Source of the DNA: a virus
IMG/VR virus record: IMGVR_UViG_3300010397_000042
Location: 25,012-89,011 of that record
Length of the DNA stretch: 64,000 bases
Direction: 5' to 3' (one strand)
Shown: positions 13,993 to 42,808 of the stretch, in pieces
Position numbering within the stretch: position 1 is the stretch's first letter
Layout: every line of letters begins with the position of its first letter
Position numbers and translations under genes: made by a program
Notes under the pieces: generated by a model
What the model was told of the DNA's origin: nothing
Seen by the model: the letters and a program-made list of their open reading frames with translations, nothing else
Database searches by the model: none

Positions 13993-14021
13993 ACTATAGC
14001 ACGTTATTCAGAGTGTGTCAA
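13993..14021 (-). promoter_or_regulatory. Leaderless-type promoter with operator core
   Basis: Read leftward: TTGACA (14021-14016), spacer of 17 beginning CACTCTGAA, extended -10 TGCTATAGT (-10 at 13998-13993). ATG follows after 5 bases. The -35 contains the TGA stop of the gene upstream. Confidence 0.8.
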
Positions 14022-14194
14022 GCCGCGGCACGAAGTTTTGAGATTTCGTTCAGTTGCTTGTGGGCTAGGTCGCGGTAACGGCGCGATGCCGTTCCGTTGT
14101 TCTTGCCTTGATGGTAGGAGTGTTTTGATCCGCTGTACCAAAGGTGCAGTCGGATCGCTTCGCGGTATTGTTCGATGTAGTATGTTTCGGTCAT
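14018..14194 (-). CDS. Small hypothetical protein, 58 residues
   Basis: ATG at 14194 overlaps the stop of the 153-residue gene; the frame ends at TGA 14018-14020 inside the -35 box of the next promoter. Starts MTETYYIEQYREAIRLHLWY; aromatic and basic. No family recognised. Confidence 0.65.
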   Translation of the reverse strand: MTETYYIEQYREAIRLHLWYSGSKHSYHQGKNNGTASRRYRDLAHKQLNEISKLRAAA

Positions 14195-14652
14195 TGTTCT
14201 AATAGGTACTGTAATGCGAGTCTTATCGGTTCGGGCATGTCTGGAAACTGTTCGCTGTTTACGAGCTGTAAGATCTGACGGTCCGGGATGGTTTGCTTGA
14301 TGCGTTTCAGGGTAGATGCGTTTGCTTTCGCGGCGTGCTCAGGCTTGCCGCCGTCTCTGAGCTCGCGTTGTATGGCCTCCCCTAGGATGAGTAGGGGGCG
14401 CACGTTCTTAGCGAGCGGTCTAGGCACGTCTGGGTTGTCCAGAGGGTTGTCTAGACCTTCAGTGTTACAGAATATTTCGAGTTTTTCGAGAGCATCATCG
14501 GGAAAGGATGCATGTCCGCGAATGGCCTTGGTGAATCCGGAAGTAGGAACGTTCGTCTCAGTCATCATGTCTAGGATCTCAGCTAATCCCTTAGCGGATC
14601 CAGCTGCACGGATAACCGGTAACCACGCGGGATGAACCCCAAGCTTTCTCAT
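14191..14652 (-). CDS. Hypothetical protein
   Basis: 153 residues, mostly helical, with repeated Pro-bounded helices and an Arg/Lys-rich C-terminal half. No catalytic motif seen. ATG overlaps the stop of the 17-residue micropeptide gene. Confidence 0.7.
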   Translation of the reverse strand: MRKLGVHPAWLPVIRAAGSAKGLAEILDMMTETNVPTSGFTKAIRGHASFPDDALEKLEIFCNTEGLDNPLDNPDVPRPLAKNVRPLLILGEAIQRELRDGGKPEHAAKANASTLKRIKQTIPDRQILQLVNSEQFPDMPEPIRLALQYLLEQ

Positions 14653-14702
14653 TTGGATCGGAGTATAGCAATCGCGATGCCGATCAGCAAAGCGAGGGTC
14701 AT
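14649..14702 (-). CDS. Membrane micropeptide, 17 residues
   Basis: Product MTLALLIGIAIAILRSK, a single hydrophobic helix with a basic end. AAAGGAGA lies 8 bases before ATG 14702, and both ends overlap neighbours by ATGA, as for real genes here. One of three such micropeptides in the window. Confidence 0.65.
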   Translation of the reverse strand: MTLALLIGIAIAILRSK

Positions 14703-14896
14703 AGCAGCGTCTCCTTTGGTTGTTTCCGTCCCCCTCCGTACACCCAAGTGAACGACCAGAAACGGGTTGGGGTTTCGATGGCGATCGAGCGTGTATCGAG
14801 CAATCCTGCTTCGCCTGGCCAGTAGGATAGGAACGTACTACCTAGGCCGATCCAATAGTATGGTGATCCATGTTTCTCTCCTCGTCCCCAGTTCAT
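14699..14896 (-). CDS. Small Trp/Tyr-rich hypothetical protein
   Basis: 65 residues with many aromatic and Gly residues (YYWIGLGSTFLSYWPG; FWSFTWVYGGGRK). Possibly membrane-associated. Coupled at both ends. No family recognised. Confidence 0.6.
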   Translation of the reverse strand: MNWGRGEKHGSPYYWIGLGSTFLSYWPGEAGLLDTRSIAIETPTRFWSFTWVYGGGRKQPKETLL

Positions 14897-15180
14897 GCGA
14901 TGGGCCTCCCTTCATCGTCGAACAACTCAGGGATCGGGAGCATGTCGACTAACTCACCTAATACCGTTTCGATTATTTCTCGGGCGCCTAAGGGCGGGTT
15001 ATGGTGCCACTGGATCGACTCGACCAGACGTCGCCTAGCCTGTTCCGGGTTGAGTCCGTCGAGTAGCGTTCCCTTCCCGTCAACCGAGGCGAGAGTGTAG
15101 TAACAACCCCCTAGTTGATCGTTGGCTTCTACCTCAGCGGTGCCCCACGCGTTGATGGTAACTCGGATACTAAATGCCAT
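14893..15180 (-). CDS. Hypothetical protein
   Basis: 95 residues; beta-rich N-terminus (FSIRVTINAWGTAEVEAN), helical C-terminus ending in an acidic loop. No family recognised. Confidence 0.65.
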   Translation of the reverse strand: MAFSIRVTINAWGTAEVEANDQLGGCYYTLASVDGKGTLLDGLNPEQARRRLVESIQWHHNPPLGAREIIETVLGELVDMLPIPELFDDEGRPIA

Positions 15181-15485
15181 TATTGTCCCCTATGTCGTTT
15201 GAACCATTCACAATAGTCGTTTAGTGACATCGAACTGTAATAACTCGGTATGTGCAGCTCGACCGCGATCACGCAATCGTGATAATTCCAGTTGACGGCG
15301 CACATTTCGAGCTCATAGGTGAACGAGCGTTCGAATCCGAGAGGTCCGTCCGGTTTCTCGAATCGGAATACGATCCGGTCCCCTTCGCGTGGCACGTGAT
15401 CGACCAAATAATCACGTACCTTGTAGTTGAGATCCCGGACGTCGAGTTTCGCCTCGTCTAGGTTGGTGTGGAATGTGAGCTTCAT
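15180..15485 (-). CDS. Hypothetical protein
   Basis: 101 residues, acidic and aromatic, beta-rich (RIVFRFEKPDGPLGFERSF). ATG overlaps the upstream TAA. No family recognised. Confidence 0.65.
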   Translation of the reverse strand: MKLTFHTNLDEAKLDVRDLNYKVRDYLVDHVPREGDRIVFRFEKPDGPLGFERSFTYELEMCAVNWNYHDCVIAVELHIPSYYSSMSLNDYCEWFKRHRGQ

Positions 15486-15799
15486 TACTTGCGCATCTCC
15501 TTACTCCAGCTACAGGAATCGAGCGCATAGCTCGCGGCCATGCGTGCACGTTGGCAGGCAGCACGGTGCATTGGTCCGCCGTGGAAGATGGCTAGATCGT
15601 CTGCCGATACGCTTACGCATATGCAAACTTCGGTAGAGGTGCTAATCATTTCCACGTAGGCCGCAGGCACTGCAATTAGAACCGCATCACGGATCTCTTG
15701 TGCGGATCTCTCGGCTAGGGCGCGATCGGCGACCGTACACAATCCGTAGATCCGAACTAAACAACCGTAACGATCACGCGTCCAGGAACAGCCTTTCAT
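15485..15799 (-). CDS. Hypothetical protein with scattered cysteines
   Basis: 104 residues; mixed alpha/beta with central EVCICVSVSADDLAIF. No family recognised. Its ATG overlaps the TGA of the interrupted gene upstream. Confidence 0.6.
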   Translation of the reverse strand: MKGCSWTRDRYGCLVRIYGLCTVADRALAERSAQEIRDAVLIAVPAAYVEMISTSTEVCICVSVSADDLAIFHGGPMHRAACQRARMAASYALDSCSWSKEMRK

Positions 15800-15972
15800 T
15801 CTGCACCTACGATGTGGAAACCTTCGGCAGCAAGTTCGTTTAGGAGTGTGTCACGGTCGCGACGTCATCGGAGCGAATCGCCTGTTTCCGCGTGATAGGC
15901 CTCCCAAACGTGATTTGGAATGGCGCTTGGGGTTCGAAGCTTCTTGACGATAACGGAAGGTTTAGAGCTCAT
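15796..15972 (-). pseudogene. Small gene interrupted by an in-frame TGA
   Basis: From ATG 15972 the frame codes 35 residues (MSSKPSVIVKKLRTPSAIPN and on), hits TGA at 15865-15867, then stays open for 22 more codons (RRDRDTLLNELAAEGFHIVG...) to a TGA at 15796-15798. Both outer ends overlap neighbours by ATGA, as if the original gene spanned the whole stretch. Either a nonsense mutation, stop readthrough or a base error; the 35-residue product may still be made. Confidence 0.55.
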
Positions 15973-17259: not shown

Positions 17260-17262
17260 GAT

Positions 17263-17305: not shown

Positions 17306-17536
17306 TTAGCGCCAGCTTGATTCTTGCGCGCCTTCAATACGACTGAGGTTTACGCAAACCTCCCAATCGTCACTAGGTTCGCGTGCCAACAACAGATCAC
17401 CGATCCCGTATCGGTTCGGTAACTCACGCACTACGAACCACTCTCCTTCGAATCCGTCCGGACCGAAGCGACCCGATCCGTTGTAGCGAGACAGGACAGT
17501 GACCTTCAAGCCCTTTTCGTATCGTTCCGTCTTCAT
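17306..17536 (-). CDS. Hypothetical protein
   Basis: 76 residues, beta-rich (KGLKVTVLSRYNGSGRFG), possibly SH3-like. Its ATG lies 6 bases after a TATAGT -10 box, so the transcript should be leaderless. No family recognised. Confidence 0.65.
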   Translation of the reverse strand: MKTERYEKGLKVTVLSRYNGSGRFGPDGFEGEWFVVRELPNRYGIGDLLLAREPSDDWEVCVNLSRIEGAQESSWR

Positions 17537-19269: not shown

Positions 19270-19568
19270 GATTCCTCTATCAAATCAGCCCAATCGATTC
19301 CTTCGTGGATCAGTTGGGCCGTTTGGGGTTCAAGAATAGTGATCGCATCGAGTAGCAGACCGATAGGACCGCGCGAGTCGACCTTGTGACCACTATATAA
19401 CCATACGATCTTGAGAAGAGTTTGCACCGCGTCATACCGAATCGATGCATTAGTTATTAGTTCGGTCTCGGTCGCCTTCACACGCGCTGCTAACTCGCGT
19501 ACCGCTTTCCTACGATCCACGTCACTAAAGGCGTGGACCATGCATAAAACTTCGTCCGATAGACTCAT
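19266..19568 (-). CDS. Hypothetical helical protein
   Basis: 100 residues, mainly amphipathic helices. Lies between the VWA-like gene and the Cys-rich gene in one coupled chain. No family recognised. Confidence 0.6.
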   Translation of the reverse strand: MSLSDEVLCMVHAFSDVDRRKAVRELAARVKATETELITNASIRYDAVQTLLKIVWLYSGHKVDSRGPIGLLLDAITILEPQTAQLIHEGIDWADLIEES

Positions 19569-20362
19569 GATGCCGCCTTTACTTGGTTGATACGTTCGGC
19601 GATCCAGCGCGTTGGTTCCTTTACGATCGTGTCCGTGAGGTAGACCTCAGGGACGAGCACGTCGGTTGGGAGCATTTCGGTAACCTTGCGTAGGTAGTTG
19701 CGATATTGCTCGGTACCCATCGCGTGATATGAACGAGGCCATGCGCCATAGAAGCCGTATTTCTCAGCGTGGCCGTAGCAGACGTTGCGGGAGAATGACG
19801 GATGTGCGAGCGCGAATGCGGCCGACGAGATGTCCAAGGGTTTGGACTCGACGCGGATAACCTGAAACAGATCCCCGTCATCTCCGCCATTGGTGCAGCA
19901 CATGAGGAACAGATCAACGCCTACTTGGTTGCGCTGGAGCTGTTCCAGGAATCCGAGGATCGTGATCCCGCGCTTCAGCATGACGGATGCGTCGATGCCA
20001 GCTGAGCACGTCATGTCCACGTAGACCGAGACGTGACGTGTGACTTGCTCGGTTCGCTTGCGCTGGCGCATGCACATGGGATTACCCGCGAGGTATGCAG
20101 GCACGCATACGCGCGAGCCGGCGACCGAGGGCATGAACGCGAGCTTCAGAGTCTCGTCACATTCGATGTCCAAGTTTTCGAGGGCTTTCATTGCTTTCGA
20201 GGCGATTTCGATGTCACCCGAAAGGGCGCGCTTACGTGCCTCAGGACCTCGCACATTGAGATCCCACTGAGTGCTAGAACAGCCCTCGATTTGGTCCCAC
20301 GTGCTGCTTTTCTTGCTGGCTTCGAGAAATTCGGCGACGGAATCGAAACGGAGGATCGTCAT
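19565..20362 (-). CDS. Putative VWA-like partner of the AAA+ ATPase
   Basis: 265 residues. The segment HVSVYVDMTCSAGID contains D-x-T-x-S, a variant of the metal-ion-dependent adhesion site of VWA domains, after a beta strand as expected. MoxR-type AAA+ ATPases are commonly encoded beside VWA proteins (CobS/CobT-like pairs), and this gene lies just downstream of one. The assignment rests on motif plus context. Start codon 6 bases after a -10 box: leaderless. Confidence 0.5.
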   Translation of the reverse strand: MTILRFDSVAEFLEASKKSSTWDQIEGCSSTQWDLNVRGPEARKRALSGDIEIASKAMKALENLDIECDETLKLAFMPSVAGSRVCVPAYLAGNPMCMRQRKRTEQVTRHVSVYVDMTCSAGIDASVMLKRGITILGFLEQLQRNQVGVDLFLMCCTNGGDDGDLFQVIRVESKPLDISSAAFALAHPSFSRNVCYGHAEKYGFYGAWPRSYHAMGTEQYRNYLRKVTEMLPTDVLVPEVYLTDTIVKEPTRWIAERINQVKAAS

Positions 20363-20365
20363 GGT

Positions 20366-20602
20366 TTAGGTGTAGCTCGATTCTGAGAGTATGTCAAACG
20401 GTTTTTTGAGAGCGCGCGCCATATCTCGCGCTTCCCACCGTGTGCCGTAGTACCAGAACGATGGGGCCTCCATTTGCGACGATTGCCACTGCACGCACCA
20501 TGCATGCTTGCCGCGTTCGATGTAGCTGCGGTGCGTACGGCTATCCGTGAGAAGGATCCCCCAATGGGATCGTGGATTGATCTTGCGAACAATAGCTTTC
20601 AT
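20366..20602 (-). CDS. Small hypothetical protein containing a promoter in its 3' end
   Basis: 78 residues, basic with several Trp and Tyr. The C-terminal codons (KKPFDILSESSYT) read through the TTGACA-17-TACACC promoter of the VWA-like gene, so gene end and promoter are merged. A second frame (20359-20592) is the shadow. Confidence 0.55.
   Translation of the reverse strand: MKAIVRKINPRSHWGILLTDSRTHRSYIERGKHAWCVQWQSSQMEAPSFWYYGTRWEARDMARALKKPFDILSESSYT
20369..20397 (-). promoter_or_regulatory. Leaderless-type promoter with operator core
   Basis: Leftward TTGACA, 17-base spacer starting TACTCTCAGA, TACACC. ATG 20362 follows after 6 bases. Confidence 0.7.
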
Positions 20603-20664: not shown

Positions 20665-21726
20665 TTATGCTGCGCTCTTCACGCTATCCCATTGTTCGGG
20701 AGTCATGGCGCTGGCCATGGTCATCTCCTCAACCGTGCTTTGATCCAGACCTTGGGACAGCAGGTCCGCGCCATCGAACGATGCACGTGGTGTAACGAGC
20801 ACGCGCAACCCCTTGGACATAACAGCCTTGCGGATCGCCTGCACACGCTTAGTCCACGTCATGTTGGGCGCAACAGCCAATTCCAGATCCAGATCGTACG
20901 GCCACGCGACGCGAACGAACCGATCCAGAAACGCGCCGTCCAGCTTGTTTCGGCCCACGTACTCATGGGTAGCGCCATGCCCCCATGTGTTGGCCGCAGC
21001 GATGATCACGCAATCGGGGTGACGCGTAACCATACCATCGGGGAAGGCTGCTACGCCGTTTGCCAAGAGGGCATTGAACGCAACGAGCGCGGTGGGATCG
21101 GATCCGTCGACCTCATCCCACAAGAACACCCCACCATGTTCGTATGCCTCACGCAACATGGTGCGCTTATAGTTCCCGTTCGCGTCAATGAAGCCTAGGA
21201 GAGCGTAGGGATCCGAGACTGCACCCGTGTAGTAGAATTTCAAGCCGAGGGCTTTCGCCACGTTCTCAGCAGCGGTGGTCTTGCCCGATCCTGCAGGACC
21301 TGCAACCCATGCGTTACGCTTGCGCGTGTTGCAAGCGGCGAGCAAGCGGGGAAAATGCTTGTGCTGTAGGCCTACGTCGATCGTGCTCAGATCCGGCCGA
21401 ACCACGTTGATCGTGACGGCCTTGATCGAGCTCATGGCTTGCTGGATTGACTCCAGATCAAGCCGTTCCTCGATCATGGGGTAGAGTACTTCTGCGAGGC
21501 TTTCGAGCGCGTTGGAGTGAGCCTTGGGCGTTTCGGTAGATGAGGTATTGACCTGCATGTTCTCGGACGTTTCACCGCCCCATTTCCCCCTGCGGGTCCA
21601 CGAAATCATATCGCCCGCGTGAATGCGATCCGAGCACAAGTCGCACGGACCATCAAACTTTGCAGGAAACGCGCGCTTGACTGATTTGCCGTTCTTTTCT
21701 TCCCAGCACTTGGCATGAAATGGCAT
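20665..21726 (-). CDS. MoxR/CobS-like AAA+ ATPase with N-terminal zinc motif
   Basis: 353 residues. An N-terminal CDLCSDRIHAGD metal-binding stretch (about 28-39) precedes a AAA+ domain with Walker A GPAGSGKT (143-150), Walker B FLWDEVD (about 201-207), sensor-1 IIAAANTWG and an arginine-finger LDGAFLDRF segment. Dynein-related/MoxR ATPases remodel partner proteins, typically with a VWA protein; a VWA-like gene sits two genes downstream. AGGAGAGA precedes ATG 21726. Confidence 0.85.
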   Translation of the reverse strand: MPFHAKCWEEKNGKSVKRAFPAKFDGPCDLCSDRIHAGDMISWTRRGKWGGETSENMQVNTSSTETPKAHSNALESLAEVLYPMIEERLDLESIQQAMSSIKAVTINVVRPDLSTIDVGLQHKHFPRLLAACNTRKRNAWVAGPAGSGKTTAAENVAKALGLKFYYTGAVSDPYALLGFIDANGNYKRTMLREAYEHGGVFLWDEVDGSDPTALVAFNALLANGVAAFPDGMVTRHPDCVIIAAANTWGHGATHEYVGRNKLDGAFLDRFVRVAWPYDLDLELAVAPNMTWTKRVQAIRKAVMSKGLRVLVTPRASFDGADLLSQGLDQSTVEEMTMASAMTPEQWDSVKSAA

Positions 21727-21768: not shown

Positions 21769-21797
21769 TGTGTAGCGCGAATCTAAGAGTCTGTCAA
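21769..21797 (-). promoter_or_regulatory. Promoter with operator core, leadered
   Basis: Leftward TTGACA, 17-base spacer starting GACTCTTAGA, TACACA. The next start (21726) is 42 bases away with a normal ribosome site, so this is one of the few units that is not leaderless. Confidence 0.7.
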
Positions 21798-22479: not shown

Positions 22480-22682
22480 CGGGGTGTTGGGAGTATGGTG
22501 CTGTTCTCAGAGTCTGTCAATCTGTTTTTATCCGCCAGCGCGACGATCGCGATTGGGTTGTGCATGCGAGCGCGATACCAGCGGATGAAATGCTCATGAC
22601 ACCGCCTGCATTGGAGCACGGTCGGTGTCACCTGATGACCCGTTGCCGGATGCGCAGGTCCGCCGCAGAAAAAACAGCTCAT
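22476..22682 (-). CDS. Small zinc-ribbon protein
   Basis: 68 residues from ATG at 22682 with GGAGG 4 bases upstream. CFFCGGPAHP...CRRCHEHF is a four-Cys ribbon as in HNH-like or recombination helper proteins. Its last codons (NRLTDSENSTILP) run through a promoter. Confidence 0.65.
   Translation of the reverse strand: MSCFFCGGPAHPATGHQVTPTVLQCRRCHEHFIRWYRARMHNPIAIVALADKNRLTDSENSTILPTPR
22492..22520 (-). promoter_or_regulatory. Promoter with operator core, inside a coding end
   Basis: Leftward TTGACA, 17-base spacer starting GACTCTGAGA, CATACT. The micropeptide ATG (22479) follows after 12 bases: a leader of only about 5 bases. Confidence 0.7.
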
Positions 22683-22888
22683 GATACCTCCACATTGAAC
22701 CATGCCGCATCGGTGCTCATGACGCGCGAGATGATGCGGGCGTACTGACTGCGATCCATCTCACGGCCGATCGTGAGTGAGAACATCTCGCACACACGAC
22801 GGGCCGTTGCGATACGAGACTTCGTGGTCTCGATCGTAAACTTGTGTGCACCTTGTGTCGTGAGGATCGTGACGTTCCGGGTAGCCAT
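22679..22888 (-). CDS. Small hypothetical protein
   Basis: 69 residues, beta then basic helix (NVTILTTQGAHKFTIET; ATARRVCEMF). Start codon 6 bases after a -10 box: leaderless. No family recognised. Confidence 0.65.
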   Translation of the reverse strand: MATRNVTILTTQGAHKFTIETTKSRIATARRVCEMFSLTIGREMDRSQYARIISRVMSTDAAWFNVEVS

Positions 22889-23269: not shown

Positions 23270-23571
23270 AGCTCGTCCACCAAAGAGCGGAGATCTTCCT
23301 TGCTCATTTGCTCCAGGATGCGCCGTAGCGTCCGTTTGACACCTGCAACGTACGTAGACCTCCCGTTGTGCATCGATGCCGTGCGGCGCCACGTGCGATC
23401 GTTCGTCTGGTCGGGATCGCGCTCGAGACGAGCTTCCGGGTAGTCCCGGTACCAGCGTTTGAGGTACGGGCCGTATAGACTCTCGTGGTAGTCGAATGCT
23501 GGATGAGTCGTGACCATACGTCCGATGATTTGGAAACCATGCTTGACGAGAAAGTATGTAATGTCTGACAT
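23266..23571 (-). CDS. Hypothetical protein
   Basis: 101 residues; aromatic N-terminal half (ESLYGPYLKRWYRDYPEARL), basic C-terminus. First gene leftward of the divergence region; ATG 7 bases after a -10 box, so leaderless. No family recognised. Confidence 0.65.
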   Translation of the reverse strand: MSDITYFLVKHGFQIIGRMVTTHPAFDYHESLYGPYLKRWYRDYPEARLERDPDQTNDRTWRRTASMHNGRSTYVAGVKRTLRRILEQMSKEDLRSLVDEL

Positions 23572-23578: not shown

Positions 23579-23607
23579 AGTGTAGCAGAAAGCTTGTAGT
23601 ATGTCAA
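23579..23607 (-). promoter_or_regulatory. Leaderless-type promoter, divergent core
   Basis: Leftward TTGACA, 17-base spacer starting TACTACAAGC (weakest core match), extended -10 TGCTACACT. ATG 23571 after 7 bases. Leftmost promoter of the divergence region. Confidence 0.7.
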
Positions 23608-23914: not shown

Positions 23915-23943
23915 TGGACACACTCTAAGATCCGATCCATACT
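23915..23943 (+). promoter_or_regulatory. Leaderless-type promoter with operator core
   Basis: TGGACA, 17-base spacer starting CACTCTAAGA, CATACT (23938-23943). ATG 23950 follows after 6 bases. Confidence 0.75.
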
Positions 23944-23949: not shown

Positions 23950-24096
23950 ATGTACACGCTCAACAATCAAAACACGTTCGGCAGCTTCTCTGATGCAATC
24001 GAGGCCTCGCGCGACTTGCGCGACGCTGGTTATCGCGGGGTCATTGTGATCCACGACGAGAATGGCGAAGTCTGTTACTACCACGCCGCGCTGTAA
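23950..24096 (+). CDS. Small hypothetical protein, 48 residues
   Basis: Begins MYTLNNQNTFGSFSDAIEAS, ends in a short strand with two Tyr-His pairs. No ribosome site; the start is at the predicted transcription start. No family recognised. Confidence 0.65.
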   Translation: MYTLNNQNTFGSFSDAIEASRDLRDAGYRGVIVIHDENGEVCYYHAAL

Positions 24097-24253: not shown

Positions 24254-24283
24254 TCGACACACTCTAAGAAATCGAGTCATGCT
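24254..24283 (+). promoter_or_regulatory. Leaderless-type promoter with operator core
   Basis: TCGACA, 18-base spacer starting CACTCTAAGA, CATGCT (24278-24283). ATG 24290 after 6 bases. Confidence 0.65.
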
Positions 24284-24289: not shown

Positions 24290-24487
24290 ATGTACACGGT
24301 CATCATCATCCACGCACCGATCCTCGGTAACTACAGCGCTAGCAACGTGCTCTGCTACGTCCGTTCGCGCAAGGCAGCGGACAAGATGGTGCGCGAGCTT
24401 AGCGCTAAGAACGCGGGCAACGGTTACGTCGCAGGCTACATGTTTTGCGAGGGAAAGCTCGCAAGTACGATTTCTCAGATTTCTTGA
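24290..24487 (+). CDS. Small hypothetical protein
   Basis: 65 residues (MYTVIIIHAPILGNYSASNV start), alpha/beta with a basic middle. Leaderless by position. Second rightward unit of this region. No family recognised. Confidence 0.65.
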   Translation: MYTVIIIHAPILGNYSASNVLCYVRSRKAADKMVRELSAKNAGNGYVAGYMFCEGKLASTISQIS

Positions 24488-24516
24488 TTGACATACTCTG
24501 AGGCCCACGCTATAGT
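24488..24516 (+). promoter_or_regulatory. Leaderless-type promoter with operator core, best consensus
   Basis: TTGACA (24488-24493), 17-base spacer starting TACTCTGAGG, TATAGT (24511-24516). ATG 24523 after 6 bases. Confidence 0.85.
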
Positions 24517-24522: not shown

Positions 24523-24681
24523 ATGTTCGACGCCGCAAAAAAGCACGATGCCCGACGCGCCGAAGTCTACGCGCGTTTGCTCGCCGCTACGGCCGCTCTT
24601 GAGGCCTCGATCGCAACGTCCGTCAAGTACGTCAGCACCACGGCCGACACCACGGCCGCCACTGTTCGCCCCTCGCGCTGA
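24523..24681 (+). CDS. Small Ala/Thr-rich protein, 52 residues
   Basis: From ATG 24523 (leaderless) to TGA 24679-24681. Begins MFDAAKKHDARRAEVYARLL, a helix, then a Thr/Ala tail. No family recognised. Confidence 0.65.
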   Translation: MFDAAKKHDARRAEVYARLLAATAALEASIATSVKYVSTTADTTAATVRPSR

Positions 24682-24692
24682 TACACTCTAAG
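24679..24692 (+). promoter_or_regulatory. Extended -10/operator element
   Basis: TGATACACTCTAAG, identical to the element at 6570-6583, overlapping the stop of the upstream gene and 16 bases before ATG 24708. Confidence 0.55.
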
Positions 24693-24707: not shown

Positions 24708-25043
24708 ATGGTCACCCTATCGTTCATTGTACTCGCGCTGTTCCCCATCGTGCTCCCGTCGGTACTTGCCCTCGTTGGGCTCGTCCTGCTCGTGTGCGTC
24801 CCCACGCGCTCGTTTGAGCGTGAGGAGACTGCTCTGTACGTTGCCGAACAAGCGGCACTCTGGTCGGCCGTACGGGACGCGTACAATGCGGATGCGTTAG
24901 AGCTTGGGCTCGCTGTCGTGGAAGCGCAGCACACACCTGTACCTACAGAGCCTACCATGGCGGATGCGCTCTTCGCTGGGATGGCGGTTTACAGTAGGAT
25001 TAGAACTTCTAATGTCACTGTAATCGATGAGTCGAGGGCCTGA
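24708..25043 (+). CDS. Small membrane protein
   Basis: 111 residues. N-terminal long hydrophobic segment (about 4-32) then a soluble helical domain and a short C-terminal tail. AAGAAAGG lies 11 bases before ATG. Last rightward gene before the convergent hairpins. No family recognised. Confidence 0.65.
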   Translation: MVTLSFIVLALFPIVLPSVLALVGLVLLVCVPTRSFEREETALYVAEQAALWSAVRDAYNADALELGLAVVEAQHTPVPTEPTMADALFAGMAVYSRIRTSNVTVIDESRA

Positions 25044-25431: not shown

Positions 25432-25931
25432 TTATTTTCCCCATTCTGACCTGCGTTATCGCAGTGTTCTTTGATCCATCGTTTGTAATACCAAACGCTT
25501 CGATCGAGCTGCAGATACTTCCCGGTGATCGGCACATCAACGAGCTGTCCATCGCAGATCCATGCGCTCTCCGTGCGTCCAACCAGGACCTCGTTCCCAC
25601 GTAGATCATGCCCTACGTGATGCTTGAGGGTCCCAGTACAGTGAGATTTCGCCCACTCGTTCATGCGAACCTCTTCGGCATCGAGCTCGCGTTTTTTATC
25701 GGCTAGCTTCGCCTCGTAGTCGTCGCACTGAGGACACCTCACACGTTTGGCAATGTCGGTCCGAGGTGGCGGATCTGGCTGCGCAGGCGGTGGTCTGTTC
25801 GCAACTTCGATTTGCCGTGCCTGATCAGCCTGCTCAGCAGGAGTTGGAGGTCTCCACGATTTGTCCTCCGCATGACTCGCAGCACATCCCGTCGCTATCA
25901 GTACCAGCCCAAAAAAATAAAATTTTCTCAT
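25422..25931 (-). CDS. Predicted lipoprotein
   Basis: 169 residues. MRKFYFFGLVLIATGC is a signal peptide with lipobox-like ATGC (lipid-attached Cys16). A Pro-rich linker, a CPQC pair and a Glu/Lys coiled coil follow. Exported lipoproteins in phages serve in superinfection exclusion or as Rz1-type spanins; size and lack of an Rz partner here do not favour a spanin. Own leaderless promoter, so regulated separately from the long operon to its right. Confidence 0.65.
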   Translation of the reverse strand: MRKFYFFGLVLIATGCAASHAEDKSWRPPTPAEQADQARQIEVANRPPPAQPDPPPRTDIAKRVRCPQCDDYEAKLADKKRELDAEEVRMNEWAKSHCTGTLKHHVGHDLRGNEVLVGRTESAWICDGQLVDVPITGKYLQLDRSVWYYKRWIKEHCDNAGQNGENKCF

Positions 25932-25937: not shown

Positions 25938-25966
25938 ATGGTAATAATCGAAGAGTGTGTCGTCAA
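25938..25966 (-). promoter_or_regulatory. Leaderless-type promoter, weaker match
   Basis: Leftward TTGACG, 17-base spacer starting ACACACTCTTCG, TACCAT. ATG 25931 after 6 bases. Confidence 0.55.
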
Positions 25967-32692: not shown

Positions 32693-32915
32693 CTTCCTCA
32701 GGTACACTTGGTAATCCTCGATTAGCTCGCAGGCGTCGGAGAGCTCCATGGGTATTTCGAAATGCGTGGTCTCGACCTGGCCATTCACCAAGATCTCGAA
32801 TTCCACCCTGGAAGTAGACGGCGTTTCGCCAGAACTCACCCTCCAGCCACACAAGTGCATAGTAATCTCCGTCCTCGAATTCATAGTTGCCTTCTCCGAG
32901 ACGCTTCCAGCTCAC
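32679..32915 (-). CDS. Hypothetical protein, possibly frameshifted
   Basis: 78 residues from GTG 32915 (GTGA overlap). The first 36 residues (YEFEDGDYYALVWLEGEFWR and onward to YFQ) are convincing; after the GGG at about 32807 the other frame (VEFEILVNGQVETTHFEIP) looks more natural than this one, which ends in a poly-Asp tail. Confidence 0.45.
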   Translation of the reverse strand: MSWKRLGEGNYEFEDGDYYALVWLEGEFWRNAVYFQGGIRDLGEWPGRDHAFRNTHGALRRLRANRGLPSVPEEDDDD

Positions 32916-33151
32916 TTCTCAACGAGTTCTCCACTCGGCGTCACCTTGAAGTTCGCTCGAATCTTGGCTTCGGGGATAATCGTGTATCCCATCTCGTCTT
33001 CCTCGGTCACATGGTCGATGAGCCCATCGACGTCACCAGGGACCCACTCCGGGTTCTCCTCGAGAAAGTGGTAAACGTCGTCCTCTTCCTCAGCATCGAC
33101 GAAGAAGGTCACTAAGCGCTCCATCACCATATCGACTCGGTAAGTGTTCAT
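32912..33151 (-). CDS. Hypothetical protein, first gene of the long leftward operon
   Basis: 79 residues from ATG at 33151, 7 bases after a TAGAAT -10: leaderless. Acidic (FFVDAEEEDDVYHFLEENPE). The frame open to 33187 would read through the promoter and is rejected. It opens the chain of about 25 genes ending near 25971. Confidence 0.65.
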   Translation of the reverse strand: MNTYRVDMVMERLVTFFVDAEEEDDVYHFLEENPEWVPGDVDGLIDHVTEEDEMGYTIIPEAKIRANFKVTPSGELVEK

Positions 33152-33158: not shown

Positions 33159-33187
33159 ATTCTAGCACTAAACTCAGAGTGTGTCAA
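33159..33187 (-). promoter_or_regulatory. Leaderless-type promoter of the long operon
   Basis: Leftward TTGACA, 17-base spacer starting CACTCTGAGT, TAGAAT with TGC extension. Perfect core match. Confidence 0.8.
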
Positions 33188-33228: not shown

Positions 33229-33684
33229 TCAGAGGACGAAGTACCGTCCCTCGATCTTGGTGATCACGCCACGAGACTTGAGCTCATCGAGGGCCGAATA
33301 CAACCGATCGCGGTGTTGCTGGTCGTCGAGCCCGTAGAGCTTACGAACGAGCACACCGTTGTCGATGTGGCCATTGCCCTCTTTGATGGCTTGGATGATG
33401 AGTTTCTGGACACGACTCGAGCCGCGAGGCTTGTTCCTAGGGGGTCCAGCATTACGGATAAGCCCAAGGTTTTCGAGATCGTCCCAAAGATTCAAGGACT
33501 TGATCTCTCGGTTGATGGTGCTGAGGCTAACCTCGAGGGCTTCCGCAGCCTCTTCGCGGTTTCCATCATGCTTCTTCATCGTATCAAGGATGAGCTTTCG
33601 GCGCTCTTCCTCTGTGAATCTGCGTCGCATTCCACTTCCTGCGGGTTCAGATTGGAATTTCTTAGCTCCCGCCCTGTTCTTCAT
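33229..33684 (-). CDS. Fis-like HTH transcription regulator, candidate repressor
   Basis: 151 residues. Residues about 22-70 (KLILDTMKKHDGNREEAAEA, then LEVSLSTINREIK) form a Fis/NtrC-type helix-turn-helix; the C-terminal 60 residues (LIIQAIKEGNGHIDNGVLV, ALDELKSRGVITKIEG) look like a winged helix. Monocistronic, leaderless, behind a core-containing promoter and followed by a terminator. Best candidate for the protein binding the ACTCTGAG elements, but no direct proof. Confidence 0.7.
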   Translation of the reverse strand: MKNRAGAKKFQSEPAGSGMRRRFTEEERRKLILDTMKKHDGNREEAAEALEVSLSTINREIKSLNLWDDLENLGLIRNAGPPRNKPRGSSRVQKLIIQAIKEGNGHIDNGVLVRKLYGLDDQQHRDRLYSALDELKSRGVITKIEGRYFVL

Positions 33685-33691: not shown

Positions 33692-33719
33692 ATTTTAGGA
33701 CAATTTGAGAGTATGTCAA
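33692..33719 (-). promoter_or_regulatory. Leaderless-type promoter of the regulator gene
   Basis: Leftward TTGACA, 16-base spacer starting TACTCTCAAA, TAAAAT. ATG 33684 after 7 bases. Suggests autoregulation. Confidence 0.75.
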
Positions 33720-34001: not shown

Positions 34002-34003
34002 TG

Positions 34004-34017
34004 TGCTATACTCTTAG
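34004..34017 (+). promoter_or_regulatory. Extended -10/operator element
   Basis: TGCTATACTCTTAG, near-identical to the element at 2157. The ribosome site AAGG (34020-34023) and GTG 34032 follow. No -35. Confidence 0.55.
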
Positions 34018-35665: not shown

Positions 35666-35858
35666 TGCTGTCGTTCCTAGTTACTGTCCTTGTGAGTTTT
35701 GTCGGATACACGGGAGTTTCAATGCCTGCTCTGTACGCGAGATGATCCTCCGGATAACGCAACTCGAGCTCGCCATCAAAGACGCCCTCAAGGCGAACTC
35801 AGTTGCCGAGTGTGCAGCGGCGTTACACATCTTCCGAATCCTGATGGAGGCACCCTGA
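35658..35858 (+). CDS. Small Cys-containing protein
   Basis: 66 residues from ATG 35658 with GAGGA 8 bases upstream. CPCEFCRIHGSFNAC could bind one metal; helical C-terminus. No family recognised. Confidence 0.6.
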   Translation: MSDAVVPSYCPCEFCRIHGSFNACSVREMILRITQLELAIKDALKANSVAECAAALHIFRILMEAP

Positions 35859-36223
35859 AACCCATCAAAGCAGCATGGCTTGCAAAACATCTTGGGATCC
35901 CAGAACGCGCAGTTCGACGGTGGGCCTCACGAGTCGGTAAACAGTTGGACGGTGCCTGGTACGTCTCGATCGACGAGCTCGCGAAGTGTGACGGCATCGG
36001 CGGACTAACTGGAGCCTTACTCCTAATGAACGGTCCGCCCCGGAAGTGGCAGGAGGCGGTGCCGCTGGTGACAGGAGCACTCGGAGTTTCCTCGAGAACC
36101 GTCGAGGAGTGGTGTCAGAATCGACAAGGATTCGCCAAGCGTCTTGGGGACGTTTGGTACATCGATCTGGAAGAGATGAAGGAAAATTGGACCAACGAGG
36201 AAGACTGTGAAACTGCTGGATAA
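35855..36223 (+). CDS. Double helix-turn-helix DNA-binding protein, unusual CTG start
   Basis: About 122 residues. Two tandem excisionase-like HTH units: AAWLAKHLGIPERAVRRWAS with YVSIDELAK, and VTGALGVSSRTVEEWCQN with YIDLEEMKE. The likely start is CTG 35855, overlapping the previous TGA with GGAGG four bases ahead; the frame open to 35699 is shadow of the gene before. May control late transcription or packaging; sits two genes ahead of the terminase. Confidence 0.6.
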   Translation: MKPIKAAWLAKHLGIPERAVRRWASRVGKQLDGAWYVSIDELAKCDGIGGLTGALLLMNGPPRKWQEAVPLVTGALGVSSRTVEEWCQNRQGFAKRLGDVWYIDLEEMKENWTNEEDCETAG

Positions 36224-37119: not shown

Positions 37120-38476
37120 GAGCGCTCTCGCTCGCTACGCAAAAGAAAGATACGCAGCATTACAGGATAAGACGAGAGGGAATCTAGCAGACCTCCCGCT
37201 CTTCGACTTCCTGACGACGACCTCGCCACATCTTTGTCGTCCGGAGCATCTGGTCTCAGTCGTTCCGTACATGGAGGCACTCGACGAGTCGCCTCAGGCC
37301 TTCGCGCTGTCGGCGCCACCGCGGCACGGTAAGAGCGTTCTGGTCAATCATCTCTGCGCTCGGCAGATGATTCGACATCCGGGACTCAAGGTCGCTTACG
37401 GGTGCTACTCTCTCGACCTCGCAGGCTTCAACAGCCTCGAAGTCAAAGACATCCTTATCGCGAACAACGTCGAGCTCGACCGGAACCAGAATTCCAAGGA
37501 AGAGTGGCGACTCGAGAACGGAAGCGTCTTCAAGTGCGTCGCCCCCGGATCAGGCTTCACGGGTCGCGGAGCAGACCTCATCATCATCGATGACCCTTAC
37601 AAGGGTCGAACCGAAGCCGAGTCAGGACGCATCCGAGATGCCACGTGGTCCTGGTTCACCGCCGTCGCTATTACGCGACGTAGTCCTAACGCTTCCGTCA
37701 TAGTCACTCACACTCGATGGACGGTTGACGATCTCATCGGAAAGGTCACCAAAGAACACGGGTGGCCCTACGTGAATCTGCAGGCCATCAATGATCAGAG
37801 CGATGCGCTCTGGCCCAACGAATGGCCGCTCGATAAGCTTCTCGAGATCAAGTCCCTCATCGGTCCTTACGAGTGGCACTCGCTCTACATGGGCGAACCC
37901 AGACCTCGTGGCGGAGCGGTGTTCGGGGATCCCAGTCCTTGCTCAAAGGAAGACTGGCCGACGGCGTTCGACAAGATCGTCATCGGAATCGACTGCGCGT
38001 ACACGAAGAAGACCCACTCAGACTGGTCAGTCGCCGTTGTACTCGGAGTCAAAGACGGTATTCACTACATCCTCGAAGTTGTTCGCAAGCAGTGCGAGGC
38101 TCCCGAGTTCGAGAGCATTCTTCGAGGTCTTCGATTCAAGTACGGCAACCCGCCGATCTACTGGTACGTGGGTGGTCAAGAAAAAGTCATCGCTGACTTC
38201 TTCATCAACCGCGGTGTTCCGGTCAAGGCGATTCCCGCCAAGGACGACAAGTTCGTTCGTGCACAAGCGGTGGCTGCAGCATGGAATGCACACCGTGTAA
38301 TGGTTCCTGCGGAAGACCAGCGATGGAGCCGCGACTTTCTTTCTGAGGTCTTATTGTTCACGGGTCTCGATGACCCTCACGACGACCAGGTTGACGCTCT
38401 CGCTTCGGCCTTCATTCCTTCGGCTTCTAAGCGCGTTGTTCGCGGCAACCTGACGACTCAGCTTCTTTCGTACTGA
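37073..38476 (+). CDS. Terminase large subunit
   Basis: 467 residues. ATPase-nuclease that pumps DNA into the capsid. Walker A-like APPRHGKS (about 80-87), Walker B LIIIDDP (about 169-175), coupling motif VIVTHTRW; nuclease acids in GIDCAYT (about 305) and HDDQVDALASAF. It overlaps the small subunit gene by 47 bases; no clear ribosome site. Confidence 0.92.
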   Translation: MAARKRQTKTPKNSAESALARYAKERYAALQDKTRGNLADLPLFDFLTTTSPHLCRPEHLVSVVPYMEALDESPQAFALSAPPRHGKSVLVNHLCARQMIRHPGLKVAYGCYSLDLAGFNSLEVKDILIANNVELDRNQNSKEEWRLENGSVFKCVAPGSGFTGRGADLIIIDDPYKGRTEAESGRIRDATWSWFTAVAITRRSPNASVIVTHTRWTVDDLIGKVTKEHGWPYVNLQAINDQSDALWPNEWPLDKLLEIKSLIGPYEWHSLYMGEPRPRGGAVFGDPSPCSKEDWPTAFDKIVIGIDCAYTKKTHSDWSVAVVLGVKDGIHYILEVVRKQCEAPEFESILRGLRFKYGNPPIYWYVGGQEKVIADFFINRGVPVKAIPAKDDKFVRAQAVAAAWNAHRVMVPAEDQRWSRDFLSEVLLFTGLDDPHDDQVDALASAFIPSASKRVVRGNLTTQLLSY

Positions 38477-38487
38477 TAGACTCTATG
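38474..38487 (+). promoter_or_regulatory. Operator-like element at the portal start
   Basis: TGATAGACTCTATG: same pattern as 24679 and 6570, with the terminase TGA at its left end and the portal ATG at its right end. As a promoter it would start downstream of the ATG, so an operator role or chance is more likely. Confidence 0.35.
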
Positions 38488-40086: not shown

Positions 40087-40110
40087 AACCAGCACACGGC
40101 GCACTGGTTT
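40086..40110 (+). terminator. Hairpin after the portal gene
   Basis: AAACCAG...CTGGTTT, 7-bp stem, 11-base loop, no T-run. Possible attenuator or mRNA processing site. Confidence 0.35.
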
Positions 40111-40165
40111 CAAAGCGCTGCACCTCAATCGGTAGTCCACGGCGGACAACCGAAAAGGAGTTCAC

Positions 40166-40894
40166 ATGCCGAACGAGAACGACGACGGCTCGCAGAATCC
40201 GTCAGAACCTAGATACGTTACCGAAGATCAAATCGGTAATATCGTAAACTCCGCTCTTACTGCACGCTTTCCAAAGCTGCTTGGTCCGGCACTCGATGCT
40301 GCGCTCAAGCCGATTCTGGACAAGCTGAGTGCCCCTCCGCCAGCACCTCCGTCTGATGACGAGGGAACGACGAAGAAGGGAAAGCAAAACCCCGAGCTTC
40401 TTGCCATGGCGCAGAAACTCGAGGAGATGCAAAAGGAACTGAAAGTACGCGACGAACGCGTAGCCGCGGCCGAAAAGAAAGGTCGTGAAGACAAGGCATT
40501 TGCAGATTTGCGTGCCGGTCTCGAAGGCAAGGTTCGACCCGAGCTGCTTGGCATGCTCGTCGAAAACCTCTTTCACGTTCAGAAGCGAGTCGAATTCGAC
40601 GACCAGGGAACACCGCTCTTCAAGACGAGTCGAGTGCCGTATACCGGCGCAGACCCCGAAGAGTTGAGACTTCCTCTCGGTGCTGGAGTCGAGGACTTCC
40701 TCAAGAGCGAAGCCGCCAAACCATTTTTGCCCGCACCTAATCCTGGTGCTGGAGCAGGCCCACTTCCGAAACGCGGTCCATCTCCCAATCCGGGGGGAAC
40801 CGACTTTTCAAAACCCGCCACGACCGAAGCCGAAAAGACTCGTCGCGCAATGGAGCGCGAACGAATCGCAAAAGAACGACTCGGTCAACGATAA
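40166..40894 (+). CDS. Capsid scaffolding protein
   Basis: 242 residues between portal and capsid. Coiled coil at about 80-125 (MAQKLEEMQKELKVRDERVA), Pro/Gly-rich C-terminus, basic end: classic scaffold composition. AAAAGGAG precedes ATG 40166. No protease domain seen. Confidence 0.75.
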   Translation: MPNENDDGSQNPSEPRYVTEDQIGNIVNSALTARFPKLLGPALDAALKPILDKLSAPPPAPPSDDEGTTKKGKQNPELLAMAQKLEEMQKELKVRDERVAAAEKKGREDKAFADLRAGLEGKVRPELLGMLVENLFHVQKRVEFDDQGTPLFKTSRVPYTGADPEELRLPLGAGVEDFLKSEAAKPFLPAPNPGAGAGPLPKRGPSPNPGGTDFSKPATTEAEKTRRAMERERIAKERLGQR

Positions 40895-40897
40895 TTC

Positions 40898-40912
40898 GGG
40901 GTCTCAAACCCC
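40898..40912 (+). other. Hairpin before the capsid gene
   Basis: GGGGT-ctcaa-ACCCC; a second palindrome CCCATATGGG follows at 40921-40930. They sit in the 55-base gap before the capsid gene, which has no recognisable ribosome site. Confidence 0.4.
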
Positions 40913-40949
40913 ATAACAACACCCATATGGGGATTACCTAACTTATAAA

Positions 40950-41984
40950 ATGAGTACTGATTCCGTTACCACGCTTTCTTTGGTTACGCTCGCCCAGGAG
41001 TACCGCGGCGATGTCGTCAAGCAGATCAACCGTACCTGTGCGTCTCTGCGGATGCTCCGGATCGTTCCCGGTGCCGGCAAGAACATTGCCTGGGCACCCG
41101 AGGGCGACGGTGCGCTCGCTGAGAACTACAACGAGGGTGACGACGCTGAGAACTTCGCGCAGGACTCGCAGGCAGCTGCGTATCTTCCGTGGGGACTCTA
41201 TCGGTCGAACATCCACATCACGTCGCTCGCGATGGACGGTGCCGTCACGACGATGACGCCAGAGGGCAACCGCCAGCTCTGGGCGCGCGCGGTCACGAAC
41301 AACTCCGCGAAGCTCGCTAGCAAGATCAACTTGGAGTGCTTCGTGGGCCCCGGTACCGGGACGCGCATGGCGGGTCTCGAGGTTGCCATCGCTGACGACA
41401 ACACGTACGCCACGATGGACCGCACCAGCACGGACCCCGACCTGTCGTACTTCCAGTCGACGGTTGTGGATCCCGGTTCGGACACGCAGATCAGCTTCAA
41501 GCTGATTCGTGACGACCTCCGCAAGATCTTCGAGAAGTGCGGTATGCAGCCTGACATGGCGCCATGCAGTCCGGCGGTCTTCGCCGAGATTGGTGCGCTG
41601 TTCGATAACACGCGGCGTCAGGTTCAGTCGGTGACTGGTCCGCGCGGCGAGATCACGCTCGACTTCGGCTTCCAGGCTCTCGAGGTTGACGGCTGCGTCT
41701 TCTATCGCGACAAGGACTGCACGGCGAAAGCGGTTTACTACCTCAACAGCGCGCATGTTGAGATCCAGTACCTCCCGAGCGCATCGCAAGCGATGCTGAT
41801 CGAGGCGGCTGGTGGTGAGGTCACGGCGGACGACGGCTTCGGCTCGGTTCCCCTCGGCTTCAAGTACGAGATGCTCGCAAAGACGGGCCCCTCCGAGAAG
41901 GCTGAGATCCTCTGGACGGGTAACCTCGTGGTTGACCGCCCGAACACCTGCGGCAAGCGCCTTCACGTTGCGGTGGCGAGCTAA
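40950..41984 (+). CDS. Major capsid protein
   Basis: 344 residues; HK97-fold capsid by position and composition: starts TTLSLVTLAQEYRGDVV, spine and P-domain with many Ala/Val, and closing LWTGNLVVDRPNTCGK. Codon use is visibly G/C-ending and strongly biased, as for a highly expressed gene. No Shine-Dalgarno before ATG 40950 (sequence ACTTATAAA). Confidence 0.85.
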   Translation: MSTDSVTTLSLVTLAQEYRGDVVKQINRTCASLRMLRIVPGAGKNIAWAPEGDGALAENYNEGDDAENFAQDSQAAAYLPWGLYRSNIHITSLAMDGAVTTMTPEGNRQLWARAVTNNSAKLASKINLECFVGPGTGTRMAGLEVAIADDNTYATMDRTSTDPDLSYFQSTVVDPGSDTQISFKLIRDDLRKIFEKCGMQPDMAPCSPAVFAEIGALFDNTRRQVQSVTGPRGEITLDFGFQALEVDGCVFYRDKDCTAKAVYYLNSAHVEIQYLPSASQAMLIEAAGGEVTADDGFGSVPLGFKYEMLAKTGPSEKAEILWTGNLVVDRPNTCGKRLHVAVAS

Positions 41985-41989
41985 TTCAC

Positions 41990-42568
41990 ATGGCAACTGT
42001 TATCCGTAACACTGCGCCCGAGCTGACTCAGCTTGCGGACGCACACAATCAGATGAAGGACAGCCTCGTCGCGGAACTCCGCGGTGTGCTGACCGACCTC
42101 GCCGCCGTTGCAGCAGACGGTGATGTCAACGTAACGACGACCTTCACCGCCTTCGGGTCGCACAACGACAAGAGCGAAGTTCTTGTCACTGGCGACGACG
42201 CAGACGGTGGTGCTGAGGACGACGGCCTCCAAGGCTGCATCGACCTCGCGAATGAGCTCAAGGCTGTCTACAACTTCCATGTTGCAGACACGCTGGCCCA
42301 CAAGGTCGCCGGTTCTCCGGTGACCACGGCAAAGGCACACGACCTCGATACGGTGAAGACGCTCGCGGCTGCGATCCGTACAGCATACGAGGCACATCGT
42401 CAGTCGACGACTTACCACTATGTGGCGGACTCGACGAACACGATCTCGGCTTCCTCGACGTCGACGCTCGCTGATGTGGTCACTCTCGTGAACGAGCTCA
42501 AGGCAGATCTCAATGCTCACATGGGCTCAGGTCCAACCATGAAGTCCATTCGATTGGTGGGTGCCTAA
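41990..42568 (+). CDS. Probable capsid decoration / head fibre-like protein
   Basis: 192 residues with three repeats of a helix type: LANELKAVYNFHVADTLAHK, IRTAYEAHRQSTTYHYVADS, VNELKADLNAHMGSGP. Ends IRLVGA. Such ELKADLNAHxxS repeats occur in structural proteins after the capsid gene in related phages. Role inferred from position. Confidence 0.6.
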   Translation: MATVIRNTAPELTQLADAHNQMKDSLVAELRGVLTDLAAVAADGDVNVTTTFTAFGSHNDKSEVLVTGDDADGGAEDDGLQGCIDLANELKAVYNFHVADTLAHKVAGSPVTTAKAHDLDTVKTLAAAIRTAYEAHRQSTTYHYVADSTNTISASSTSTLADVVTLVNELKADLNAHMGSGPTMKSIRLVGA

Positions 42569-42783
42569 TGGATAACCAAGCTCGTCTCGACTTCATCTTC
42601 GACGCGGTCGATGCTCTCGAACTCGAGGAAGATGAGAAGACCGCCCTGATGTACGTTCTGAGCTCGATCCCGAGTGTCTCGATCGACGTCGATGGTGTGA
42701 TGTCGTTCACCGACGCTGCCATCGCGGTCTGTCCCGACCTCTCGTCGACGTCCCAGACCATGCCCATCTTCACAGGCGGTTGA
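42568..42783 (+). CDS. Small acidic protein
   Basis: 71 residues, helical (FIFDAVDALELEEDEKTALM). Starts at the base where the previous stop ends; its own stop is inside the -35 of the HNH promoter. May be a head protein. Confidence 0.6.
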   Translation: MDNQARLDFIFDAVDALELEEDEKTALMYVLSSIPSVSIDVDGVMSFTDAAIAVCPDLSSTSQTMPIFTGG

Positions 42784-42808
42784 CACACTCTGAGTAACGG
42801 GTTATACT
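42780..42808 (+). promoter_or_regulatory. Leaderless-type promoter with operator core
   Basis: TTGACA (42780-42785), 17-base spacer starting CACTCTGAGT, TATACT (42803-42808). GTG 42815 follows after 6 bases. Only early-type promoter inside the structural region. Confidence 0.85.

What the first reader, a model, noticed from the sequence alone, without database searches (positions are those of the whole stretch)
13993..42808. A phage-wide regulon of leaderless promoters with an operator built into the spacer
Fifteen promoters (5138, 13993, 17543, 20369, 21769, 22492, 22895, 23579, 23915, 24254, 24488, 25938, 33159, 33692, 42780) share TTGACA (or close), a 16-18 base spacer usually beginning [CTG]ACTCT[GACT]A, and TATACT/TATAGT/TACACT-like -10. 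At twelve the start codon is 6-7 bases past the -10, exactly where transcription should begin, and no ribosome site exists. The exceptions are 5138, 21769 and 22492. The core is a small dyad, ACTC-T-GAGT, suggesting a repressor site between the polymerase contacts, like dispersed stoperators but tied to start points. Leaderless starts on this scale in one phage are remarkable.
Basis: partly seen in the sequence, partly recalled or inferred. Interest (0 to 1): 0.92.

Follow-up and report, generated by a model that had tools for sequence, protein, structure and literature searches.

The report
Phage operator promoters, mostly leaderless
This phage appears to control many of its genes through about twenty near-identical promoters that have one shared, direction-specific binding site built into them and often start transcription right at the start codon; it closely resembles the repressor-"stoperator" control of Cluster A mycobacteriophages, but with a different site and, apparently, an unrelated regulator.

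Summary
All 15 listed promoters exist. The other 25 kb of this 89-kb phage add at least five more promoters of the same design, these with Shine-Dalgarno leaders, so the shared feature is the site and not leaderlessness.

The site is a 15-bp asymmetric element, TTGACA-N-ACTCTNAG, running from the -35 into the spacer. It is not the ACTC-T-GAGT dyad proposed.

This is the anatomy of the repressor/stoperator system of Cluster A mycobacteriophages, whose sites (CTTGACATCCACC) have the same layout. No homologue of their repressor was found. The best local candidate regulator is a 151-aa helix-turn-helix protein (window 33229-33684, minus), itself made from one of these promoters.

Leaderless starts probably reflect the host: the likely host phylum shows a -10 peak 6 bases before ATG. 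Leaderless phage genes are known elsewhere (phiYS40, Corndog). Verdict: real; a new variant of a known kind; regulator and mechanism inferred.

The parts
13993..14021 (-). class I operator promoter TTGACA-cACTCTGAA-TATAGT; leaderless ATG at 13987 (glycosyltransferase gene 12890-13987)
   Evidence: PF00534
17543..17571 (-). class I operator promoter; leaderless ATG at 17536 (ORF 17306-17536)
20369..20397 (-). class I operator promoter; leaderless ATG at 20362 (ORF 19565-20362); -10 is TACACC
21769..21797 (-). class I operator promoter, not leaderless: 42 nt to the ATG of an AAA ATPase gene (20665-21726) that has a Shine-Dalgarno
22492..22520 (-). class I operator promoter without a nearby start codon
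22895..22923 (-). class I operator promoter; leaderless ATG at 22888
23579..23607 (-). class I promoter with variant element ACTACAAG; leaderless ATG at 23571
23915..23943 (+). class I operator promoter; leaderless ATG at 23950
24254..24283 (+). class I operator promoter (TCGACA, 18-bp spacer, CATGCT); leaderless ATG at 24290
24488..24516 (+). class I operator promoter; leaderless ATG at 24523
25938..25966 (-). TTGACG-N17-TACCAT promoter with the element displaced 3 bases downstream; leaderless ATG at 25931
   Evidence: sequence
33159..33187 (-). class I operator promoter; leaderless ATG at 33151 (ORF 32912-33151)
33692..33719 (-). class I operator promoter (16-bp spacer, TAAAAT) of the candidate regulator gene; leaderless ATG at 33684
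42780..42808 (+). class I operator promoter; leaderless GTG at 42815
5138..5166 (+). strong promoter with a degenerate element (ACGCTGTC), not leaderless; upstream of a VRR_NUC-domain ORF (5194-5538)
2156..2170 (+). class II site GTGCTATACTCTGAG, 10 nt before the start of the RNA ligase gene, at the ribonucleotide reductase stop
5993..6007 (+). class II site GTGCTACACTATGAG, 17 nt before ATG
6341..6355 (+). class II site TTGATAGACTACAAG, 10 nt before ATG
6569..6583 (+). class II site ATGATACACTCTAAG, 9 nt before ATG
24678..24692 (+). class II site CTGATACACTCTAAG, 15 nt before ATG of ORF 24708-25043; carries the stop of the upstream leaderless gene
34003..34017 (+). class II site GTGCTATACTCTTAG, 14 nt before GTG
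38473..38487 (+). class II site CTGATAGACTCTATG spanning the terminase stop and the portal start codon
49523..49537 (+). class II site ACGACACACTCTGAG, 9 nt before TTG
61178..61192 (+). class II site ATAATAGACTCTTAG, 5 nt before ATG
33229..33684 (-). candidate regulator, 151 aa: N-terminal Fis-type helix-turn-helix (HTH_8, E 1.2e-6) and a possible second, winged-helix-like C-terminal region (weak)
   Evidence: no homologue
35810..36223 (+). second candidate regulator, 137 aa with two HTH-like stretches (HTH_17 E 2.3e-7; HTH_28 E 3.9e-5)

Best explanation
The phage has a repressor/operator regulon. A phage-encoded protein, probably the 151-aa helix-turn-helix protein at window 33229-33684, binds a 15-bp asymmetric site (TTGACA-N-ACTCTNAG) that covers the -35 and the first half of the spacer. 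Bound there it blocks host sigma-70-type RNA polymerase at about twenty promoters, including its own (negative autoregulation). At the nine copies lying between genes it may also stop elongating polymerase, or block weak internal promoters, as stoperators do. Where the -10 lies 5-7 bases from the start codon the transcript begins at the start codon and is translated leaderless, using a capacity the host probably already has. SHOWN by sequence: the sites, geometry, orientation, absent Shine-Dalgarno and enrichment. INFERRED: that a protein binds, that it represses, which protein it is, that the mRNAs are leaderless, and the lysogeny or temporal role.
For: The element is as conserved as the -35 while flanking spacer bases are not. 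The promoters are already near consensus, so an activator is not needed. Nearly all promoters with a perfect TTGACA and a good -10 carry the element or a degenerate form; the one doubtful match without it is at genome 44266. There are 29 hits at score 12 or more against 2.9 shuffled. Nine promoter-less copies sit 5-17 nt before starts or across a gene junction, all co-oriented with transcription; of 23 non-promoter hits, 9 lie 4-20 nt before a same-strand start against 1.3% expected (P about 1e-11). Cluster A phages Superchunk and Deano show the same layout: CTTGACATCCACC / CTTGACATCGCAC a few bases before ATG, and TTGACATCGCACAGTCCATCAGC-TAGAGT promoters. Cluster A sites are 13-14 bp, asymmetric, oriented with transcription, 20-34 per genome, intergenic or overlapping gene ends, and bound by one monomer with two DNA-binding domains. 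The phage encodes a tyrosine integrase. The candidate regulator has an N-terminal HTH and is transcribed from an operator promoter at the divergent junction. A relative (G004) has two promoters sharing bases just after TTGACA and a leaderless XRE-type HTH gene between them.
Against: No binding or expression data exist. The candidate has no homologue in phages, IMG/VR or PDB beyond its HTH. Its C-terminal winged helix is only a weak match (TrmB E 0.0085), and the structure model is poor (pLDDT 50). No close relative of the phage was found, so conservation of the sites across genomes could not be tested. Class II sites differ from class I in the TTGACA half (position 4 is T instead of C in 8 of 9), unlike Cluster A stoperators, which keep TTGACA.
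Confidence: 0.6

Rival explanations
1. The element is an activator or co-factor box: a phage protein that contacts sigma region 4 binds ACTCTNAG next to the -35 and switches these promoters on at one stage of infection, rather than repressing them.
For: The element is fixed in register with the -35 in nearly all class I sites; some -10s are weak (CATACT, TACACC, CATGCT).
Against: The -35 is essentially perfect consensus and most -10s are good, unlike activator-dependent promoters. Nine copies have no -35/-10 pair. The site lies downstream of the -35, not upstream where activators usually sit.
Confidence: 0.15
2. Class II copies are promoters too: extended -10 elements (TGNTANACT) on whose 3' end the same operator core is laid, so one regulator controls both -35/-10 and extended -10 promoters. 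(This concerns class II only and is compatible with the best explanation for class I.)
For: Position 4 of the element is C in class I but T in 8 of 9 class II sites (Fisher P 3e-5), which makes TANACT; 7 of 9 have TG at the extended -10 position; none has a -35.
Against: The Shine-Dalgarno would then lie at the very 5' end of a roughly 10-nt leader, and one site (CACACT) lacks the -10 T. Cluster A stoperators occupy the same kind of place without being promoters.
Confidence: 0.3
3. Class II copies act on translation, like the start-associated sequences (SAS) of Cluster K mycobacteriophages.
For: They sit 5-17 nt before start codons and can merge with the Shine-Dalgarno (AAGGA); SAS sites lie 3-7 bp before starts.
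Against: The same core lies upstream of the transcription start in class I promoters, where it is not in the RNA; so a DNA-level role is simpler.
Confidence: 0.08
4. The element is only an extended, strong -35 context spread by duplication of promoter cassettes, with no dedicated regulator.
For: Promoter cassettes can multiply in phages; many downstream genes are small orphans.
Against: Flanking and rear-spacer bases are not conserved, so recent duplication is unlikely. In IMG/VR the TTGACA-ACTCTNAG-TANANT combination (31 stretches) is no commoner than one with a scrambled core (41), so the core is not a general feature of phage promoters. Promoter-less copies exist.
Confidence: 0.1

Closest known systems
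Repressor/stoperator system of Cluster A actinobacteriophages (L5, Bxb1, Superchunk, Deano; Cluster CA Rasputin)
   Same: Many short asymmetric sites containing TTGACA plus about 7 specific bases, oriented with transcription, in promoters and at short gene junctions just before starts; operator promoters with TTGACA-N17-TAGNGT.
   Different: Different specific half (N-ACTCTNAG against TCCACC/TCGCAC); most sites here are full promoters and mostly leaderless; the promoter-less sites lose TTGACA; no homologue of the Cluster A repressor found.
Streptomyces phage R4 repressor-stoperator system
   Same: One repressor acting at an early promoter and at many intergenic sites.
   Different: Site and repressor not compared here.
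Cluster K start-associated sequences (SAS/ESAS)
   Same: Short asymmetric repeats immediately before start codons, one orientation.
   Different: SAS contain the Shine-Dalgarno, are thought to act in translation and are not part of -35/-10 promoters.
Leaderless phage transcription: Thermus phage phiYS40; predicted PL1, PR2 and PL2 of Cluster O phage Corndog
   Same: Several phage genes transcribed from the start codon.
   Different: No shared operator in the spacer is described there; Corndog's 17-bp repeats are palindromes not tied to starts.
Repeated intergenic motifs of E. coli phage TLS and Nostoc phages A-1/N-1
   Same: Repeated motifs between genes, compared by their authors with stoperators outside Actinobacteria.
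   Different: Different sequences; function untested; not reported as tied to leaderless starts in the passages read.

Membership tests
Cluster A repressor/stoperator system | About 20-34 copies of a short (13-14 bp) asymmetric site per genome | tested here: met
   about 20 promoter sites plus 9 junction sites of a 15-bp asymmetric element; 29 hits at score 12 or more against 2.9 shuffled
[quoted passage not shown]
   class I by promoter direction; 9 of 9 class II with the + strand genes
Cluster A repressor/stoperator system | Sites intergenic or overlapping gene ends, and also in early promoters | tested here: met
   compare Superchunk and Deano
Cluster A repressor/stoperator system | Conserved TGTCAA(G) (= (C)TTGACA) half in all sites | tested here: not met
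   met in class I; the nine class II sites mostly read TGATA/TGCTA instead
Cluster A repressor/stoperator system | Homologue of the immunity repressor (HTH plus stoperator domain) | tested here: not met
   tblastn of Superchunk gp78 and Deano gp67 against the phage: no significant hit; phmmer with the candidate: none; no PDB match to such a repressor
Cluster A repressor/stoperator system | Repressor binding blocks initiation and elongation | not testable with these tools
   needs binding and reporter experiments
Cluster A repressor/stoperator system | Temperate phage with integration or partition functions | tested here: met
   tyrosine integrase, phrog_1 E 5e-27, PF00589 E 2.6e-7
Leaderless (5'-UTR-less) genes | -10 element 5-9 nt before the start codon and no Shine-Dalgarno | tested here: met
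   12 genes
Leaderless (5'-UTR-less) genes | Mapped transcription start at the first base of the start codon | not testable with these tools
   needs dRNA-seq or Cappable-seq
Cluster K start-associated sequences | Sites contain the Shine-Dalgarno and lie 3-7 bp before starts | tested here: not met
   distances here are 5-17 nt and the core does not contain AGGAG

The most novel reading that the evidence does not exclude
A repressor/stoperator immunity system arose independently, or was carried, outside the actinobacteriophages, in a temperate phage of a Myxococcota-like host. It uses an unrelated, possibly two-domain DNA-binding protein, and its operators are mostly complete leaderless promoters, so one protein sets initiation, and perhaps elongation, for some thirty genes.
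Probability: 0.33. Interest if true: 0.68.

Novelty: new variant of a known kind. Interest (0 to 1): 0.52.

Why it matters
If right, it shows that dispersed, direction-specific repressor sites built around the -35 are a general phage solution and not a peculiarity of Cluster A mycobacteriophages. It also shows that a phage can couple such control to leaderless translation. Because the sites are many and clear, the regulator could be found by one pull-down, and leaderless initiation in a little-studied host phylum could be tested directly.

Tried and rejected
Dyad core: rejected, position 12 of the element is variable. General phage promoter feature: rejected, the scrambled-core control gave 41 stretches against 31 (the reversed pattern gave 7). 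Conservation in relatives: terminase relatives in IMG/VR and in bacterial genomes (mostly 25-45% identity) lack the element, so conservation could not be tested. -35 upstream of class II sites: none. Structure of the candidate regulator: low confidence, not used. Cluster A repressor homology: none. Megablast of 12 kb to phage records: no match. Accession look-ups for L5, Che12 and Bxb1 failed; Superchunk and Deano were used instead. Gene calls are from a home-made caller, so some starts may be wrong; the leaderless tests used mechanical ORFs.
Full report
WHAT IS THERE. The window is bases 25012-89011 of an 89,011-base virus record; the remaining 25 kb were fetched. The twelve called leaderless have ATG or GTG 5-7 nt past the -10; the exceptions are 5138, 21769 and 22492, as stated. 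The rest of the genome adds at least five further promoters of the same design (genome coordinates 7462, 15662, 17816, 18023, 22260), upstream of recombination genes (Sak4-like, exonuclease, SSB), a phosphoesterase-like gene and small unknown genes. All five have a Shine-Dalgarno-like sequence before their start. So the operator is the common feature, and leaderlessness belongs to the 12 promoters in window 14-43 kb.

IS IT MORE THAN CHANCE. Across 19 aligned sites the columns TTGACA, A-C-T-C-T and A-G carry 1.1-1.9 bits each, the rear half of the spacer almost none until the -10. The 15-mer matrix gives 29 hits at score 12 or more, against 2.9 in shuffled sequence. Eleven of 18 well-phased sites have a start codon opening an ORF of at least 40 codons at the leaderless position, against 4.7% at random positions (P about 6e-11); pairing to the anti-Shine-Dalgarno upstream of those starts averages -1.5 kcal/mol, against -5.2 for all called genes and -3.0 for random positions. 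The proposed dyad ACTC-T-GAGT fails: the G after the centre is present in 11 of 19 and the final T in 5 of 19.

A SECOND CLASS. Nine more copies lie on the plus strand at gene junctions, 5-17 nt before starts (eight) or across the terminase/portal junction (one), always pointing with transcription: window 2156, 5993, 6341, 6569, 24678, 34003, 38473, 49523, 61178. None has a convincing -35 at promoter distance. Their TTGACA half reads TGATA or TGCTA in most, with C to T at position 4 in 8 of 9 (Fisher P 3e-5). This could be relaxed selection where no -35 is needed, or an extended -10 (TGNTANACT). Both readings are kept.

NEIGHBOURHOOD AND REGULATOR. The phage has a tyrosine integrase, so it is probably temperate. 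Two proteins have helix-turn-helix matches and could read the site. One is the 151-aa product of the leaderless gene at 33229-33684 (HTH_8 E 1.2e-6; a C-terminal stretch weakly like TrmB, E 0.0085). The other is the 137-aa product at 35810-36223 (HTH_17 E 2.3e-7, HTH_28 E 3.9e-5) just before the terminase genes. The first is preferred because it is made from an operator promoter at the divergent junction between the leftward accessory region and the rightward structural operon. It has no homologue in phages, IMG/VR or the PDB beyond the HTH, and only a weak plasmid match to a sigma-54 regulator, and its single-sequence model is poor.

HOST AND LEADERLESSNESS. The phage carries a complete tmRNA with tag ANDNAIPELQAAA. 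Chromosomal tmRNAs of the phylum of the best cellular terminase hit (a deltaproteobacterium MAG) often carry ANDNAIALAA-type tags, and three of eleven such genomes hold a 40-45% terminase relative. In one of these genomes (G062, 800 kb sampled) TANNNT is enriched 6 nt before ATG (18 against 4.1 per position) and to a lesser degree at 7-9 nt, the signature of leaderless genes. So leaderless initiation is probably ordinary in the host lineage. Promoters in two distant relatives also have a start 6 nt after the -10, one of them an XRE-type HTH gene. Calling the phylum Myxococcota is inference from the MAG's title and genome size.

HOW IT LIKELY WORKS. A protein bound to TTGACA-N-ACTCTNAG covers the -35 and must exclude sigma region 4; this explains why an otherwise near-consensus promoter carries eight extra conserved positions. 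The site is asymmetric and copies recur at gene junctions in the direction of transcription. This is the arrangement of Cluster A phages, where one repressor monomer with two DNA-binding domains recognises an asymmetric 13-mer and acts both at promoters and, at stoperators, on elongating polymerase. I checked the geometry in two Cluster A genomes: Superchunk CTTGACATCCACC and Deano CTTGACATCGCAC occur a few bases before start codons, and Deano has TTGACATCGCACAGTCCATCAGC-TAGAGT, the same -35 + specific bases + 17-bp promoter layout.

KNOWN OR NEW. It works like a stoperator system but is not filed as a member: no Cluster A repressor homologue was found, and the promoter-less sites lack TTGACA. 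Leaderless phage genes are known from phiYS40 and predicted in Corndog. Authors have compared repeated motifs in non-actinobacterial phages with stoperators before, and Streptomyces phage R4 has such a system. What is unusual here is the combination: most sites are whole promoters, most of these are leaderless, and the phage probably infects a different phylum. No relative carrying the same element was found; in IMG/VR it is no commoner than a scrambled control (31 against 41 stretches). The case therefore rests on one genome, whose internal repetition is its evidence.

Noticed in passing
L002:14701-15044 (minus; genome 14701-15044, outside the window): The phage carries a complete tmRNA gene (Rfam 103.5 bits) with tag ANDNAIPELQAAA. 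It shares ANDNAI with chromosomal tags of the probable host phylum (ANDNAIALAA) but ends PELQAAA instead of ALAA, so it may mark host proteins differently. It lies close to the integrase gene.
   Followed up: partly
L002:14400-14650: Two stretches beside the tmRNA look like tRNA genes by eye (GGTTCGA-like arms) but ARAGORN and Rfam did not call them; they may be decayed or unusual.
   Followed up: no
L002:12913-14154 (minus): Tyrosine integrase next to the tmRNA; tmRNA genes are common integration sites, so the attachment site may lie here.
   Followed up: no
window 252-2156: B12-dependent ribonucleotide reductase; nearest phage relatives are a Manatee Spring phage (33%) and Thermus phages P23-45/P74-26 (32%), ahead of Cluster A mycobacteriophages.
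   Followed up: partly
whole genome, e.g. CGAGCTCG: The palindrome CGAGCTCG occurs 58 times (both strands counted) against 8.4 expected, and CACCGC-type words are also strongly over-represented; cause unknown.
   Followed up: no
L196:7139-7429 (relative G004): A distant relative has divergent promoters, one of which shares its bases just after TTGACA with a third promoter (TTGACATTNNAAGGGG-like), and a leaderless XRE-type HTH gene: possibly the same design with another operator.
   Followed up: partly
window, A2 protein set: One small protein of the early region matches the Acb2/Tad1 hairpin domain (E 1.9e-6), which suggests an anti-defence cyclic-nucleotide sponge.
   Followed up: no
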